33,662 bases of DNA. Origin: Candidatus Enterocloster faecavium. Its GTDB lineage: Bacteria > Bacillota > Clostridia > Lachnospirales > Lachnospiraceae. This document shows positions 12,663 through 27,218 of the stretch, piece by piece; position 1 is the stretch's first letter, and each line of letters starts with the position of its first letter. The translations under genes and the position numbers were made by a program. The notes under the pieces are model-generated. The model did not search any database, was not told the origin of the DNA, and saw only the letters and a list, made by a program, of their open reading frames with translations. The stretch lies in assembly GCA_019118585.1 (NCBI GenBank), contig DWYS01000122.1, forward strand, positions 1-33,662, read 5' to 3'.

Positions 12663-12670
12663 AGAAACAG

Positions 12671-12746
12671 AAGATGTGTGACTGGCGGAAAGTGGAGATT
12701 ACCACAGGGAGCACATCGGATGTTTTGAAAGCCGGCCGCCTGGGCA
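12671..12746 (+). ncRNA. ZTP/ZMP riboswitch (pfl motif) aptamer
   Basis: The conserved pfl core is present in order: GTGACTGGCGG (12678-12688), GTGG...ACCAC stem (12692-12705), AGGGAGC (12706-12712), then the distal CCGCCTGGGCA (12736-12746). GATGTG (12673-12678) pairs with CACATC (12712-12717) as P1, and the distal CGCC can pair with GGCG as the pseudoknot. The last aptamer bases are also the left arm of the terminator at 12736-12780, so ligand binding should prevent termination (ON switch). It precedes the two genes that use up AICAR (ZMP), the ligand. Confidence 0.93.
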
Positions 12747-12780
12747 TACTATGGATCCGTATGCCCAGGCGGTTTTGTTA
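12736..12780 (+). terminator. Riboswitch expression-platform terminator
   Basis: A perfect 14-bp stem (12736-12749 with 12759-12772), 9-base loop and TTTTGTTA tail. The left arm includes the CCGCCTGGGCA strand required by the ZTP aptamer, so the two folds exclude each other. Confidence 0.92.
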
Positions 12781-23203: not shown

Positions 23204-24679
23204 ATGCTGATTCAGGAAGATCTGAGTCTGGAGGAGAAATTGAAGATCTTGTCCGATGGAGCAAAGTACGATGCTGCCTGTACCTCCAGCGGAGTCAGCC
23301 GCAGGGGCAGACCGGGATTTTTGGGGAATACGTCTGCAGCCGGCATCTGCCACAGCTTTGCTGCAGACGGACGATGCATCTCCCTGTTGAAGATCCTTTT
23401 GACCAATCAGTGCATTTATGACTGCAAGTACTGCGTCAACCGCTGTTCCAACGATACGGTGCGGACTGCATTTACGCCTCAGGAGGTATGCCGTCTAACC
23501 ATGGAATTCTACCGCCGCAATTATATTGAAGGACTGTTTTTGAGTTCCGGCGTTCTTTACAGTGCGGATTACACGATGGAACAGATTTATGAGGTGGTAT
23601 GGAGACTGCGCACCCAGTACCGGTTCAACGGATATATCCATGTGAAGGCCATACCGGGAGCTTCTCCGGAGCTGATTGAGCAGACCGGCTTTCTGGCAGA
23701 CCGGATGAGTGTGAATCTGGAGCTGCCCACGGCAGAGGGACTGAAAAAACTGGCACCCGGAAAGACCAGGGAAAAGATTCTGCGTCCCATGCGCCAGATC
23801 CAGCAGGGCATCTGGGGGAACGCCCATTTTTTGGACGGTGAAGATCAAAGAAAGATAGGGAGCGGGGAAAGAGGAGGCCCGTCTTTTTTGCAGGGAACGG
23901 GAGCCGGCTTTCGGGGAGGGGCCGCCCTTTTGAGGGAGGATCTGGCCCAATCCGGATACAGGCCCCGAAATTCCCAGGGCAGGCCATTTGTGCCGGGAGG
24001 GCAGAGTACGCAGATGATCGTGGGAGCCACCCCGGAGAGCGATCTTCAGATGATGTCGGTGGCCCAGGCTCTCTATTATAATTTTGGATTAAAGAGGGTA
24101 TTTTACTCCGCCTATATCCCGGTCAATCAGGATGAGTCGCTTCCTTCCCTTCCGGGAGGTCCGCCTCTTCTGCGGGAACACCGGCTGTACCAGGCAGACT
24201 GGCTGCTGAGATTTTACGGATTCCGGGCGGAGGAGCTTTTGTCTGAAGAACAGCCTAATTTTAATGTGTTTCTGGATCCTAAGTGTGACTGGGCGCTGCG
24301 TCACCTGGAGCTGTTCCCGGTCGAGGTGAACCGGGCGGATTACGGGGCACTTCTGAGAGTACCGGGGATGGGAGTTAAGTCGGTCCGGCGGATCCTGGCG
24401 GCCAGAAGAGGGGGAAAGCTGGATTTCGGGGATTTGAAGAAGCTGGGGGTAGTGATGAAGCGGGCGGTTTATTTTATCACCTGCAAAGGAAAGATGATGG
24501 AAGGGGTCAGGCTGGACCAGGATTATATCACCAGCTGCCTTCTGGGGGACGAGAGGAGGTCAGTGTGGGATATTGAGCACAAGGACTGCTACCGCCAGCT
24601 GTCCCTCTTTGATGATTGGAAGCTTGAGGTTTGTCCCAGCAGTGAGGATGCAGTGAAGGCCGGGAAGGGAGAGTTGTAA
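23204..24679 (+). CDS. Radical SAM protein, putative DNA modification/repair (UDG-linked family)
   Basis: A 491-residue radical SAM protein of the rSAM_link_UDG type (TIGR03916-like). The cluster cysteines are C70, C74 and C77 (CIYDCKYC), inside LLKILLTNQCIYDCKYCVNRCSND. The barrel continues with EGLFLSSGVLYSADYTMEQI and FVPGGQSTQMIVGATPESDLQ. A helix-hairpin-helix near residues 381-430 (LLRVPGMGVKSVRRILAAR) suggests DNA binding. The exact reaction is unknown. Residues about 202-262 form a glycine-rich, low-complexity insert that seems longer than in relatives. GGAGGA lies 8 to 9 bases before the ATG. Transcription is from a LexA-boxed promoter, and the TIGR03915 partner starts at the base after the stop. 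Confidence 0.9.
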   Translation: MLIQEDLSLEEKLKILSDGAKYDAACTSSGVSRRGRPGFLGNTSAAGICHSFAADGRCISLLKILLTNQCIYDCKYCVNRCSNDTVRTAFTPQEVCRLTMEFYRRNYIEGLFLSSGVLYSADYTMEQIYEVVWRLRTQYRFNGYIHVKAIPGASPELIEQTGFLADRMSVNLELPTAEGLKKLAPGKTREKILRPMRQIQQGIWGNAHFLDGEDQRKIGSGERGGPSFLQGTGAGFRGGAALLREDLAQSGYRPRNSQGRPFVPGGQSTQMIVGATPESDLQMMSVAQALYYNFGLKRVFYSAYIPVNQDESLPSLPGGPPLLREHRLYQADWLLRFYGFRAEELLSEEQPNFNVFLDPKCDWALRHLELFPVEVNRADYGALLRVPGMGVKSVRRILAARRGGKLDFGDLKKLGVVMKRAVYFITCKGKMMEGVRLDQDYITSCLLGDERRSVWDIEHKDCYRQLSLFDDWKLEVCPSSEDAVKAGKGEL

Positions 24680-25507
24680 ATGACGGTTTATCTGTGTGAA
24701 GGGGATCTTGAACATATTTTGTGCGGGGTGTATGAGGCGTGGACGAGCCGCAGGGGCCATAAGAACGTGAGGCTTGCGCTGGAGGGGGAGGCATTTCAGA
24801 CCAGCTTTCTGGAGGAATATGTCCATGTTCCATATGAAGAGAGAAAATTCCGGGCCGTTTTTGACGCGATGGAACAGAAACTCTCCGCCCAGGTGACAGA
24901 CTGGGTTTACCGTGCTTCCCTCAGTGAGGATGAGGAGAGAGCAGATAAGATTTACCGTTTTCTTGTAACCGCTTTTGCCCTTGGTGCGGCGGTTGTGGAG
25001 CGTCTGCAGATCCCGGCGGTCCAGGAAGTGTTCCAGCTGTGCCGGTTTGTGGGGAATGAAAGCCATCTGATGACGGAGTTTCTGCGCTTTGTCCAGACGC
25101 CTTCCAACGTGCTGGTAAGCCGGATCGGACCGAAAAATGATGTGCTGCCCCTGATTTCCCCTCATTTTGCCGACCGGCTCCCATCGGAGAACTGGGTGAT
25201 TTGGGATGAGAACAGAGGCAAAGCGTCCGTGCACCAGGCTGATAAGGGATGGTTCCTCGTCTCCCTGACAGCGGAGGAAGAAAAGCAGATATCCATTTTA
25301 GCCGGAGGCGGGGGAAGGCTGCGGCAGGAGCCATCATCAGGACCGGAAACAGGATCCGAAATTTTTTCCGTCTGCGGGGAAGATTATGAGAAGCTGTGGA
25401 AATCCTTCTGCACCAGCATAGCCATATCCCAGCGGAACAATCCCCGCTGCCAGAGGACCCATCTTCCGCTGCGGTACAGGCCGTACATGACGGAATTTCA
25501 AAATTAG
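24680..25507 (+). CDS. TIGR03915/DUF4130 family putative DNA-repair protein
   Basis: A 275-residue protein of the DUF4130 family, which nearly always accompanies the radical SAM protein upstream. Visible blocks are YLCEGDLEHILCGVYEAW at the start, RFVGNESHLMTEFLRFV and PLISPHFADRLPSENWVIWDENRGKASVH in the middle, and the typical end RNNPRCQRTHLPLRYRPYMTEF. In many bacteria this protein is fused to a uracil-DNA-glycosylase-like domain; here it ends without one, so a separate glycosylase might lie elsewhere. Its ATG directly follows the rSAM stop, with the ribosome site (GGGAAGGGAG) inside the rSAM end, so the two are translated together. Biochemical role is undetermined. A retron begins about 50 bases downstream. 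Confidence 0.88.
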   Translation: MTVYLCEGDLEHILCGVYEAWTSRRGHKNVRLALEGEAFQTSFLEEYVHVPYEERKFRAVFDAMEQKLSAQVTDWVYRASLSEDEERADKIYRFLVTAFALGAAVVERLQIPAVQEVFQLCRFVGNESHLMTEFLRFVQTPSNVLVSRIGPKNDVLPLISPHFADRLPSENWVIWDENRGKASVHQADKGWFLVSLTAEEEKQISILAGGGGRLRQEPSSGPETGSEIFSVCGEDYEKLWKSFCTSIAISQRNNPRCQRTHLPLRYRPYMTEFQN

Positions 25508-25510
25508 GAG

Positions 25511-25539
25511 TTCCCCATCTATAGATCGTGTGGTATAGT
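25511..25539 (+). promoter_or_regulatory. Extended -10 promoter for the retron RNA
   Basis: TATAGT (25534-25539) preceded by TGG (extended -10). The -35 region 17 bases upstream, TTCCCC (25511-25516), is weak. Start of transcription would be about 25546, roughly 10 bases before the a1 repeat, which fits a retron RNA. Confidence 0.5.
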
Positions 25540-25556
25540 AGGAGTATCCGGAAGGA

Positions 25557-25759
25557 GCCCGGGTTTCGGGCGTTGGCAGCGAAATCAGAGCAATGCTTTG
25601 GGCGGGCGGCGAGTCGCCGTCCGGAGTGGGAGAACTCAGGGATCAGCCCCCAGGCAGCTACGATGTACGGCCGCACATTTCATGTGCATAAAGCCTGCGG
25701 CTTTGTACATCTGCGCTTCCTGGTCTATCCCTGTCAGTGCTGACGCCCAAAGGCCGGGC
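25557..25759 (+). ncRNA. Retron msr-msd non-coding RNA
   Basis: About 203 bases between the repair gene and the reverse transcriptase fold as a retron RNA. The ends are complementary: a1 25568-25578 (GGGCGTTGGCA) pairs with a2 25738-25748 (TGCTGACGCCC) over 11 bp with two G-T pairs. Outer TTT/AAA and GCCC/GGGC pairing extends it to 25557 and 25759. AGC follows a1 at 25578-25580; its G (25579) is the expected branch guanosine. The msr then has hairpins 25586-25600, 25604-25622 and 25624-25637. The msd is a long stem opened by CAGGGAT/ATCCCTG (25637-25643 with 25727-25733), then CCAGG/CCTGG and ATGTAC/GTACAT (25663-25668 with 25705-25710). It is topped by GCACAT/ATGTGC and AAAGCC/GGCTTT hairpins. 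Ends are approximate. Confidence 0.8.
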
Positions 25760-25786
25760 CGCGGAGAGAAAAGAGGGAGAAGGACA

Positions 25787-26767
25787 ATGGGGGACGGGGA
25801 AATCTGGAAATACTGCGGAAAAGAACAGGCGGTGGAAATGATCCTGTCCCTTCAGCTTCTTCCATCCTCCGGCTGGCAGAGAGAGCGGATCCTGGCCTGT
25901 CTGTATGCGCTGTCCAATCATCCGGAGGAGCATTACCATCCGGTATGGATTCCTAAAAGAAGGGGCGGATACCGGAGGCTGGATGTGCCGGATCCGCTGC
26001 TGAAACAGGTTCAGAGAAATATCCTTCATCATGTGCTGGAGGGCTTTTCCGTTTCGCCGGCAGCAGCAGCCTACCGGAAAAACCGCTGTGCGGCTGATGG
26101 GGCGGCTGTTCACATAGGAAAGCCTCTGGTTTTGAAGCTGGATATCCATGATTTTTTCGGCAGCATCACCTTTCCTATGGTGCTGGGGTATGGGTTTCCT
26201 GCCGCTTATTTTCCGGAGGAAGTCCGGGTACTGCTGGCCTCCCTTTGCTGCTGCCGCCAGAGACTGCCGCAGGGAGCTCCCACGTCACCGGCTTTGTCCA
26301 ATCTGGTGATGAAACATTTTGATGAGGCCATGGCTGCCTGGTGCGGCCCTCAGAATATTGCCTATACACGGTACTGTGATGACATGACCTTTTCCGGAGA
26401 TTTGAATCCCGGCGCAGTAATCGGAAGGGTCCGCGGCTTTCTGGAGACCATGGGAATGGAGCTGAACCACAGCAAGACCGCCGTCTGTTCCCAGTTCAGC
26501 CGTCAGACGGTAACCGGAATTACGGTCAACCAGGTATGCCAGCTTCCAAGAGAGGACAGGAGGAAGCTGCGCCAGGAGGTCTATCTCTGCCTGCGCTACG
26601 GTACAGGAGAGAGCAGACCGGCGGATTCGGTACGCCGTCTGGAACAGATCCTGGGGAAGGTCAGCTATCTTTTGCAGGTTCGACCGGATGACCGGTGGTT
26701 CCTGGAACAGAGGGAAGCTTTAAAGGAGATGCTGAAGAAAGAGAGGGGACAAGTTTATGAGTCATGA
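25787..26767 (+). CDS. Retron-type reverse transcriptase
   Basis: A 326-residue reverse transcriptase with no extra domain. Motifs in order: KPLVLKLDIHDFFGSIT with catalytic D119, LPQGAPTSPALSNLV (160-174), YTRYCDDMTFSG with active-site YCDD at 196-199, LNHSKTAV, and the retron-typical VTG at 242-244 (QTVTGITVNQ). The NAxxH region appears as GAAVH (105-109), and the YADD usual for retrons is YCDD. There is no maturase or HNH domain, which argues against a group II intron. The ATG at 25787 has GGGAGAAGG upstream. The frame is open back to 25598, but that part is the retron RNA. It should copy the msd into RNA-linked msDNA. The last 11 bases overlap the next gene. Confidence 0.92.
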   Translation: MGDGEIWKYCGKEQAVEMILSLQLLPSSGWQRERILACLYALSNHPEEHYHPVWIPKRRGGYRRLDVPDPLLKQVQRNILHHVLEGFSVSPAAAAYRKNRCAADGAAVHIGKPLVLKLDIHDFFGSITFPMVLGYGFPAAYFPEEVRVLLASLCCCRQRLPQGAPTSPALSNLVMKHFDEAMAAWCGPQNIAYTRYCDDMTFSGDLNPGAVIGRVRGFLETMGMELNHSKTAVCSQFSRQTVTGITVNQVCQLPREDRRKLRQEVYLCLRYGTGESRPADSVRRLEQILGKVSYLLQVRPDDRWFLEQREALKEMLKKERGQVYES

Positions 26768-27218
26768 GGAACAGGCGAGAGCTCTTTTTATGGAGGGCTG
26801 CAACTGTGCCCAAGCGGCGTTCTGCGCCTTTTGCGACGTGACGGGCATGGAGAACGGGATGGCCATGAGACTTTCCTCCTCCTTTGGCGGAGGGATGGGA
26901 CGGCTGCGAGAGGTGTGCGGGGCACTGTCCGGTATCTTTATGGCGGCCGGGATCCTCTACGGCTACGATGACCTGACAGATAAATCCCTAAAGACTGCCC
27001 ATTATGAGAGGATCCAGGAGCTGGCGGCGCGTTTTCGGGAGGAGAACGGTTCGATTCTCTGCCGGGAAATCTTGGGACTGGCGGAGGAGCACAGTCAGCC
27101 TGAACCGGAGGACAGGACGCCGGACTACTATGCCAGACGCCCCTGCCCGGAGGTAGTGGCCAGAGCGGCCAGAATTTTCGAGGCGTATATGAGGGAGCAT
27201 CCGATTCCAGAGCGATGA
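26757..27218 (+). CDS. C_GCAxxG_C_C family protein (putative redox protein)
   Basis: A 153-residue protein with the conserved cysteine pattern of the C_GCAxxG_C_C family: C15 and C17 in GCNCAQAAF, FGGGMGRLREVCGALSGIFMAAG near residues 42-65, a later C in LCREILG and another in RPCPEVV. Members are small proteins thought to use their cysteines for redox or metal/cluster binding; no reaction is firmly known to me. The ATG lies 11 bases inside the end of the reverse transcriptase gene, with AGGGG about 9 bases before it, so translation is coupled. Whether it takes part in retron function is unknown. The family is also common without any retron. Confidence 0.85.
   Translation: MSHEEQARALFMEGCNCAQAAFCAFCDVTGMENGMAMRLSSSFGGGMGRLREVCGALSGIFMAAGILYGYDDLTDKSLKTAHYERIQELAARFREENGSILCREILGLAEEHSQPEPEDRTPDYYARRPCPEVVARAARIFEAYMREHPIPER

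What the first reader, a model, noticed from the sequence alone, without database searches (positions are those of the whole stretch)
25557..26767. Complete retron locus: msr-msd RNA plus reverse transcriptase
The 280-base gap before the reverse transcriptase is not empty. It has complementary ends (25568-25578 with 25738-25748, extendable to 25557/25759), an AGC at the expected branch position directly after a1, three msr hairpins and a msd stem of nearly 100 bases capped by two hairpins. A 326-residue RT with the VTG motif follows. Layout a1-msr-msd-a2-RT is that of retrons. Whether this RNA family has been described I cannot tell.
Basis: partly seen in the sequence, partly recalled or inferred. 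Interest (0 to 1): 0.9.

Follow-up and report, generated by a model that had tools for sequence, protein, structure and literature searches.

The report
Effector-free Ec107-type retron in Clostridia
The window holds a complete retron, a two-part element of a folded RNA and a reverse transcriptase, of the same family as E. coli retron Ec107; it is a sound find of a known kind, with no recognisable effector gene beside it.

Summary
The observation and its reading hold. Window 25557-25759 carries a retron msr-msd RNA and 25787-26767 a 326-aa retron RT. The RT is 45% identical to that of E. coli Ec107 (Retron-Eco5) over 310 aa; its best PADLOC model is RT_Ec107-like. In a tree of 45 RTs it falls with Ec107 in a clade of 30 (support 100/99), all with the same type of RNA. 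In 22 aligned RNAs, 36 of 48 pairs show compensatory changes, 0/500 shuffles as high. A covariance model built without the window, its nearest relative and Ec107 finds the window RNA (E 5.6e-20) and Ec107's (E 9e-13). Rfam has no match.

The RT is the only gene family shared by all 28 loci compared, at 21 sites by my count, so no linked effector is seen. One empty site suggests, less firmly, that the element runs from just before the RNA to about the RT stop codon, with 45-67 bp of the empty site unmatched. One relative holds two msd-only copies far from its retron.

Verdict: new member of a known kind. Production of msDNA is inferred, not shown.

The parts
25557..25578 (+). a1, 5' arm of the terminal helix that positions the priming site
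   Evidence: 22-position helix with 25738-25759; its last 12 positions covary in 22 loci
25579..25579 (+). putative branching G (2'-OH primer of reverse transcription)
   Evidence: invariant G directly after a1 in alignment A1; role inferred from known retrons
25581..25602 (+). variable msr hairpin 1 (limits approximate)
   Evidence: different sequences and lengths in the 22 loci; folded
25603..25623 (+). conserved msr hairpin 2, 9 bp, GAGTCG at the tip
   Evidence: 5 of 9 pairs with compensatory changes, 3 never vary, 95.5% of cells paired
25633..25737 (+). msd, template of a predicted RT-DNA of about 105 nt; 5' limit by analogy with Ec107
   Evidence: stems 25648-25657/25716-25725 and 25662-25668/25705-25711, hairpins 25673-25687 and 25693-25701
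25738..25759 (+). a2, 3' arm of the terminal helix
25787..26767 (+). retron reverse transcriptase, 326 aa, Ec107 family (YCDD, VTG)

Best explanation
This is an intact two-part retron of the Ec107 (Retron-Eco5) family. [quoted passage not shown] The a1/a2 helix brings G25579 next to the last template base (25737). The RT recognises the msr (most likely the GAGTCG hairpin), starts DNA from the 2'-OH of that G and copies the msd back to about 25633, giving a branched RNA-DNA with a two-tipped hairpin of about 105 nt. No linked effector gene is recognisable here or as a shared neighbour in the relatives compared. Shown here: RNA structure by covariation, RT clade, motifs, selection on the RT, lack of a shared neighbour. 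Inferred: transcription, priming, RT-DNA length, RNA-protein recognition, any cellular role.
For: PADLOC RT_Ec107-like 414 bits against 291 for the next model. 45% identity with the RT at the E. coli pyrE-slmA site. 30 RTs with this RNA form one side of a branch, 100/99, Ec107 among them. Y(C/S)DD in 30 of 30 tabulated RTs with the RNA against 1 of 12 without it. 177 cells with changes on both sides against 58.5 in shuffles, 0/500. Held-out model R3 finds the window at 25567-25749, E 5.6e-20, and Ec107, E 9e-13; no match at E up to 1 in 15 loci whose RT lies outside the clade, in the K-12 pyrE region without the retron, or in five loci taken for the upstream gene. dN/dS 0.09-0.20 in six pairs. 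The RT is the only family in all 28 loci.
Against: The region X motif NAXXH reads GAAVH in the window; 21 of 30 tabulated RTs with the RNA have it exactly, one could not be read. No direct evidence of msDNA. dS is above 1 in three of the six pairs, the window pair among them, so those ratios are rough. In the cross test three foreign partners reach the window's own a1/a2 score, and five of 30 loci do not show the helix. Small effectors under 70 aa would have been missed.
Confidence: 0.92

Rival explanations
1. A tripartite defence retron whose effector is encoded elsewhere in the genome or is a host protein; the RT-msDNA complex is the sensor.
For: In known defence types the RT-msDNA module is the sensor and an associated protein acts (PMC13405049, passages). 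The RT is under purifying selection, so it has a role that pays.
Against: No shared linked partner in 28 loci. An unlinked partner was not searched for. The passages read describe no defence role for Ec107; only parts of six papers were read.
Confidence: 0.25
2. The overlapping downstream gene (C_GCAxxG_C_C protein, 26757-27218) is the effector.
For: Its start codon overlaps the RT stop by 11 bases.
Against: The nearest relative at the same site (L031) has only 195 bases and no ORF of 70 aa or more between RT and the next shared gene. The gene has no relative among the neighbours of the other 27 loci.
Confidence: 0.04
3. A decayed remnant that no longer makes msDNA.
For: Variant NAXXH motif. 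Other members may be damaged: G205 has the RT in two overlapping pieces in different frames, G465 a TAA inside the matched stretch, place not looked at, E. coli L097 is annotated with an internal stop.
Against: Open frame, intact RNA pairing, dN/dS 0.12 with L031 (dS 1.76).
Confidence: 0.05
4. Not a retron: another RT class (group II intron, DGR, DRT) beside a chance hairpin.
For: Weak matches to group II and DRT models (62 bits or less).
Confidence: 0.01

Closest known systems
Retron Ec107 (Retron-Eco5), E. coli, between pyrE and slmA
   Same: RT 45% identical, YCDD, VTG; homologous RNA with a1, GAGTCG hairpin, two-tipped msd, a2; only the RT between pyrE and slmA in L096; lies between housekeeping genes; replacement of 34 bp reported (PMC6868368, passages). 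Seen in 5 of 60 listed records of 5374
   Different: Host phylum; msd and a1/a2 sequences; GAAVH in place of NAQPH; site is TIGR03915-yifB (yifB named by my reading)
Other retron types (PADLOC III-A, NCBIfam St85, Ec67)
   Same: Retron RT sequence; VTG in several of the tabulated RTs outside the clade
   Different: Lower scores (NCBIfam St85 205.8 bits, below its cut-off of 235); YADD in 10 of the 12 tabulated RTs outside the clade; no GAGTCG RNA found by the models; effector ATPase PtuA beside the RT in L154, phosphoribosyltransferase upstream in L155

Membership tests
Retron (general) | RT with retron-type sequence and VTG in motif 7 | tested here: met
Retron (general) | NAXXH in region X (14 of 16 validated retrons, PMC6868368) | tested here: not met
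   GAAVH in the window; exact in 21 of 30 tabulated family RTs, one unreadable. The review gives two validated exceptions, also changed at the N, so this is a usual mark and not a strict one
Retron (general) | a1/a2 complementary ends enclosing msr and msd upstream of the RT, G after a1 | tested here: met
   weaker in the cross test, where three foreign partners reach the window's own score
Retron (general) | branched msDNA made in the cell | not testable with these tools
   needs experiment
Ec107 family | RT groups with the Ec107 RT | tested here: met
   clade 100/99; PADLOC RT_Ec107-like
Ec107 family | RNA homologous to the Ec107 msr-msd | tested here: met
   model built without Ec107 and without the window finds both
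Ec107 family | YCDD active site | tested here: met
   YCDD of Ec107 also stated in PMC6868368
Tripartite defence retron types | effector gene beside or fused to the RT | tested here: not met
   28 loci, ORFs of 70 aa or more: no neighbour family in more than 6 loci; the RT shows no added domain, it aligns to near its end with the 319-aa Ec107 RT

The most novel reading that the evidence does not exclude
An effector-free retron lineage centred on Clostridia (E. coli Ec107 being an offshoot) that spreads as a minimal mobile unit from its promoter to the RT stop codon, taking the place of some tens of intergenic base pairs, and whose RT-DNA can itself be written back into the chromosome as msd-only copies.
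Probability: 0.18. Interest if true: 0.7.

Novelty: new member of a known kind. Interest (0 to 1): 0.4.

Why it matters
Retrons are now mostly explained as a sensor plus a linked effector. Here is a family found at 21 different sites (my count) with no shared linked effector, and with its RT under purifying selection, which makes the question 'what does a retron do without an effector' testable. The covariance model gives a way to find such RNAs, which Rfam lacks, and the family offers new RT-RNA pairs from anaerobes for making ssDNA.

Tried and rejected
Rfam at gathering (whole window) and at E up to 10 (25500-25800) gave nothing on the RNA. The viral-contig scan found no relative. Phage and plasmid collections gave only RTs under 60% identity (45 and 154 records); one phage-labelled faecal contig (L098) carries the family RNA.

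duplexfold on long flanks was too noisy, so I used an ungapped helix scan. The a1/a2 limits of all 30 RNAs were then set by hand, following where it worked; one search had not found the arms finally used in L009, L012, L014-L018, L020 and L032 and only an outer part in L031 and L040; L096 and L098 were not in it. Of the 30, 22 went into alignment A1; I left out L012, L014, L015, L017, L018, L020, L039 and L098 as divergent or unsure, which raises the pairing figures. Models R1 and R3 later found all eight.

Rows dropped: L001 (the window again) and L033 (copy of L008) from motif table and tree; L022 from the tree; L042-L046 of the genome-contig scan were never read into the RT alignment or tree; L157-L162 came after the tree.

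The msd-only model R2 was run on 23 genomes: 47 places, of which 18 are the retrons' own msd (of 20 genomes with the RNA; G056 and G282 missed), one is a separate msd copy (G321, E 6.5e-12) and 28 are weak (E 0.01-0.96). Six of the 28 were compared with the genome's own retron and gave nothing but one 13-base match; the others were not compared. R2 missed the second G321 copy that BLAST found, so copies elsewhere may be missed too.

Sister genome G119 gave no match to the RT or to the TIGR03915 gene, so no empty site. Structure prediction was not used. Papers not held: Mestre 2020, Khan 2024; what I think they say about an Ec107-like clade is recall and not used as evidence.

Full report
WHAT IS THERE. 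Between a TIGR03915 putative DNA-repair gene (ends 25507) and a C_GCAxxG_C_C gene (starts 26757) lies an RT gene, 25787-26767, with a 279-base gap before it. The gap holds a structured RNA: 25557-25578 and 25738-25759 pair, and the fold is stronger than shuffles (z -3.1; msd as DNA z -3.8). The RT is single in its genome, which is 86% complete.

RT IDENTITY. PADLOC's best model is RT_Ec107-like, E 9e-125, 414 bits; the next is RT_III-A with 291 bits. Pfam sees RVT_1. NCBIfam's retron St85 RT scores 205.8, below its cut-off of 235. The best solved relatives by sequence are Ec86 RTs. I located the Ec107 site between pyrE and slmA in E. coli (5 of 60 records listed at even steps through 5374 carry an RT there), took L096 and found 45% identity over 310 aa. 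That this is Ec107 rests on the site (recalled; PMC6868368 speaks only of an intergenic region) and on YCDD, not on a label in the record. In a tree of 45 RTs the 30 with the RNA form one side of a branch (100/99). Ec107 sits in a 25-row group (95/98) whose other 24 rows are of the window's own family or of named Lachnospiraceae, Clostridiaceae and Oscillospiraceae; inner branches are less certain (85/89, 84/87). Two long-branch rows outside the clade met, as the tool warned. That Ec107 came from Clostridia is an inference; other phyla were not sampled evenly.

RNA EVIDENCE. Of 30 RNAs placed, 22 were aligned. RNAalifold alone predicted 30 pairs, 24 with a compensatory change. For the structure I named, 48 pairs, 87.2% of cells pair against 71.8% shuffled, 36 pairs have changes on both sides against 23.4, the covariation score is 0.453 against 0.182, and 0 of 500 shuffles reach any of the five measures; sliding partners by 1-3 columns drops pairing to 31-43%. 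The structure was drawn on these sequences, so the slid control leans to it. To avoid circularity I built R3 from 19 loci without the window, L031 and Ec107. It found the window at 25567-25749 (97 bits, E 5.6e-20), L031 (E 1e-26), Ec107 (E 9e-13) and, more weakly, the divergent members (down to L017, E 0.006); L159 only by a fragment (E 0.015) and L161 not at all. There was no match at E up to 1 in 15 loci with RTs outside the clade, in the K-12 region, or in five loci taken for the upstream gene. R1 found the RNA in 19 of 394 genomes of the host family, all 19 among the 33 of 397 with an RT match at E 1e-20 or better. The other 14 of the 33 have no RNA match: G282 was lost by the stricter filters (its RNA, L020, scores 45.6 bits); ten have RTs outside the clade in the tree; three (G016, G157, G183) were not put in the tree. 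In the phylum 7 of 398 genomes, the window's included, have an RT at E 1e-35 or better; five of the six others have the RNA upstream (L157-L160, L162; L159 weakly), L161 has not.

MOTIFS AND SELECTION. Among 42 RTs tabulated, Y(C/S)DD is found in 30 of 30 with the RNA and 1 of 12 without; VTG in 29 of the 30; exact NAXXH in 21 of the 30 (one unreadable), the window being an exception with GAAVH. dN/dS by a script of mine (Nei-Gojobori counting) is 0.09-0.20 in six pairs, three with dS above 1, so the RT is maintained.

NO LINKED EFFECTOR SEEN. In 28 loci with up to about 6 kb on each side, some cut by contig ends or masked, and counting ORFs of 70 aa or more, the RT is the only family in all 28. 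The next most frequent is in 6 loci (ABC transporter); others seen in 3-4 loci are at orthologous or nearby sites (dapA, aroA-tyrA-aroF, xanthine dehydrogenase) or a transporter; these names are my reading, not from a call. By my count these are 21 distinct sites. The gene overlapping the window RT by 11 bases is absent in L031, which has the retron at the same site.

BORDERS. L163, from genome G308, keeps both flanks of the dapA site without a retron between them; G308 is also not among the 33 RT-positive genomes (its row was in the unlisted part). Left likeness to L163 ends at 1280 (L035) or 1277 (L036, L038; L037 has no left match); right likeness begins at 1316 (L037), 1326 (L035), 1344 (L036), 1345 (L038). 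So 45 (L035), 66 (L036) and 67 (L038) bases of the empty site are unmatched. In L035 and L037 right likeness begins within 13 bases of the end of the RT stop codon; in L036 and L038 it begins about 104 and 77 bases after it. On the left about 50, 145 and 102 bases lie before the aligned a1 in L035, L036 and L038. BLAST ends are approximate. The tightest case, L035, fits an element from just before the RNA to the RT stop. RT stops that overlap the next start by 11, 4 and 4 bases in the window, L058 and L062, and an RT read in frame into the next gene in L063, fit it too. Which state is older was not tested. For Ec107 replacement of a palindromic 34 bp is reported (PMC6868368, passages).

MSD-ONLY COPIES. 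G321 has, far from its retron and about 9 kb apart, two stretches alike to its msd only: 94% over 47 and 90% over 31 bases at one place, 89% over 55 at the other. No msr or a1/a2 likeness was found there, and no RT trace at E up to 1 in the 3 kb fetched around each, part of which is masked. A search of 23 genomes with an msd-only model found no other strong case, but it missed the second G321 copy, and only six of 28 weak places were compared further. They may be RT-DNA written into the chromosome or leftovers of an older retron; two copies in one genome do not decide.

LITERATURE. Seen as passages only: PMC6868368, PMC8989520, PMC13405049, PMC12548924, PMC8934634, PMC12262390. Searches with Ec107, Eco5, Ec107-like, retron census and clade terms, and retron with Lachnospiraceae listed no title about this family in Clostridia; the listed papers were not read through, and the library lacks the main classification paper and the retron census. 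So I make no claim that it is undescribed; PADLOC's model name shows that such RTs were already grouped.

JUDGEMENT. Identity as an Ec107-family retron is near certain; making of msDNA is very likely; the cellular role is open. New member of a known kind, interest 0.4.

Noticed in passing
L118 1501-1574 and L120 1501-1554 (genome G321): Two msd-only copies of that genome's retron, without msr or RT likeness, about 9 kb apart.
   Followed up: partly
window 26757-27218: C_GCAxxG_C_C redox-type gene whose start overlaps the RT stop by 11 bases; absent at this place in L031.
   Followed up: partly
L163 1277-1345 against L035-L038: Empty site of the retron upstream of dapA; 45-67 bases unmatched; right border at the RT stop in two of four relatives.
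   Followed up: partly
L063 RT frame: RT reads in frame into the next gene, which by my reading (recall, no call) looks like an NAD(P)H-hydrate epimerase.
   Followed up: no
window 12668-12752: ZMP/ZTP riboswitch, 62.3 bits.
   Followed up: no
window 23204-25507: Pair of TIGR03916 radical SAM and TIGR03915 genes, putative DNA modification or repair.
   Followed up: no
L098 1114-1299: A faecal contig labelled as phage carries a family RNA and RT.
   Followed up: no
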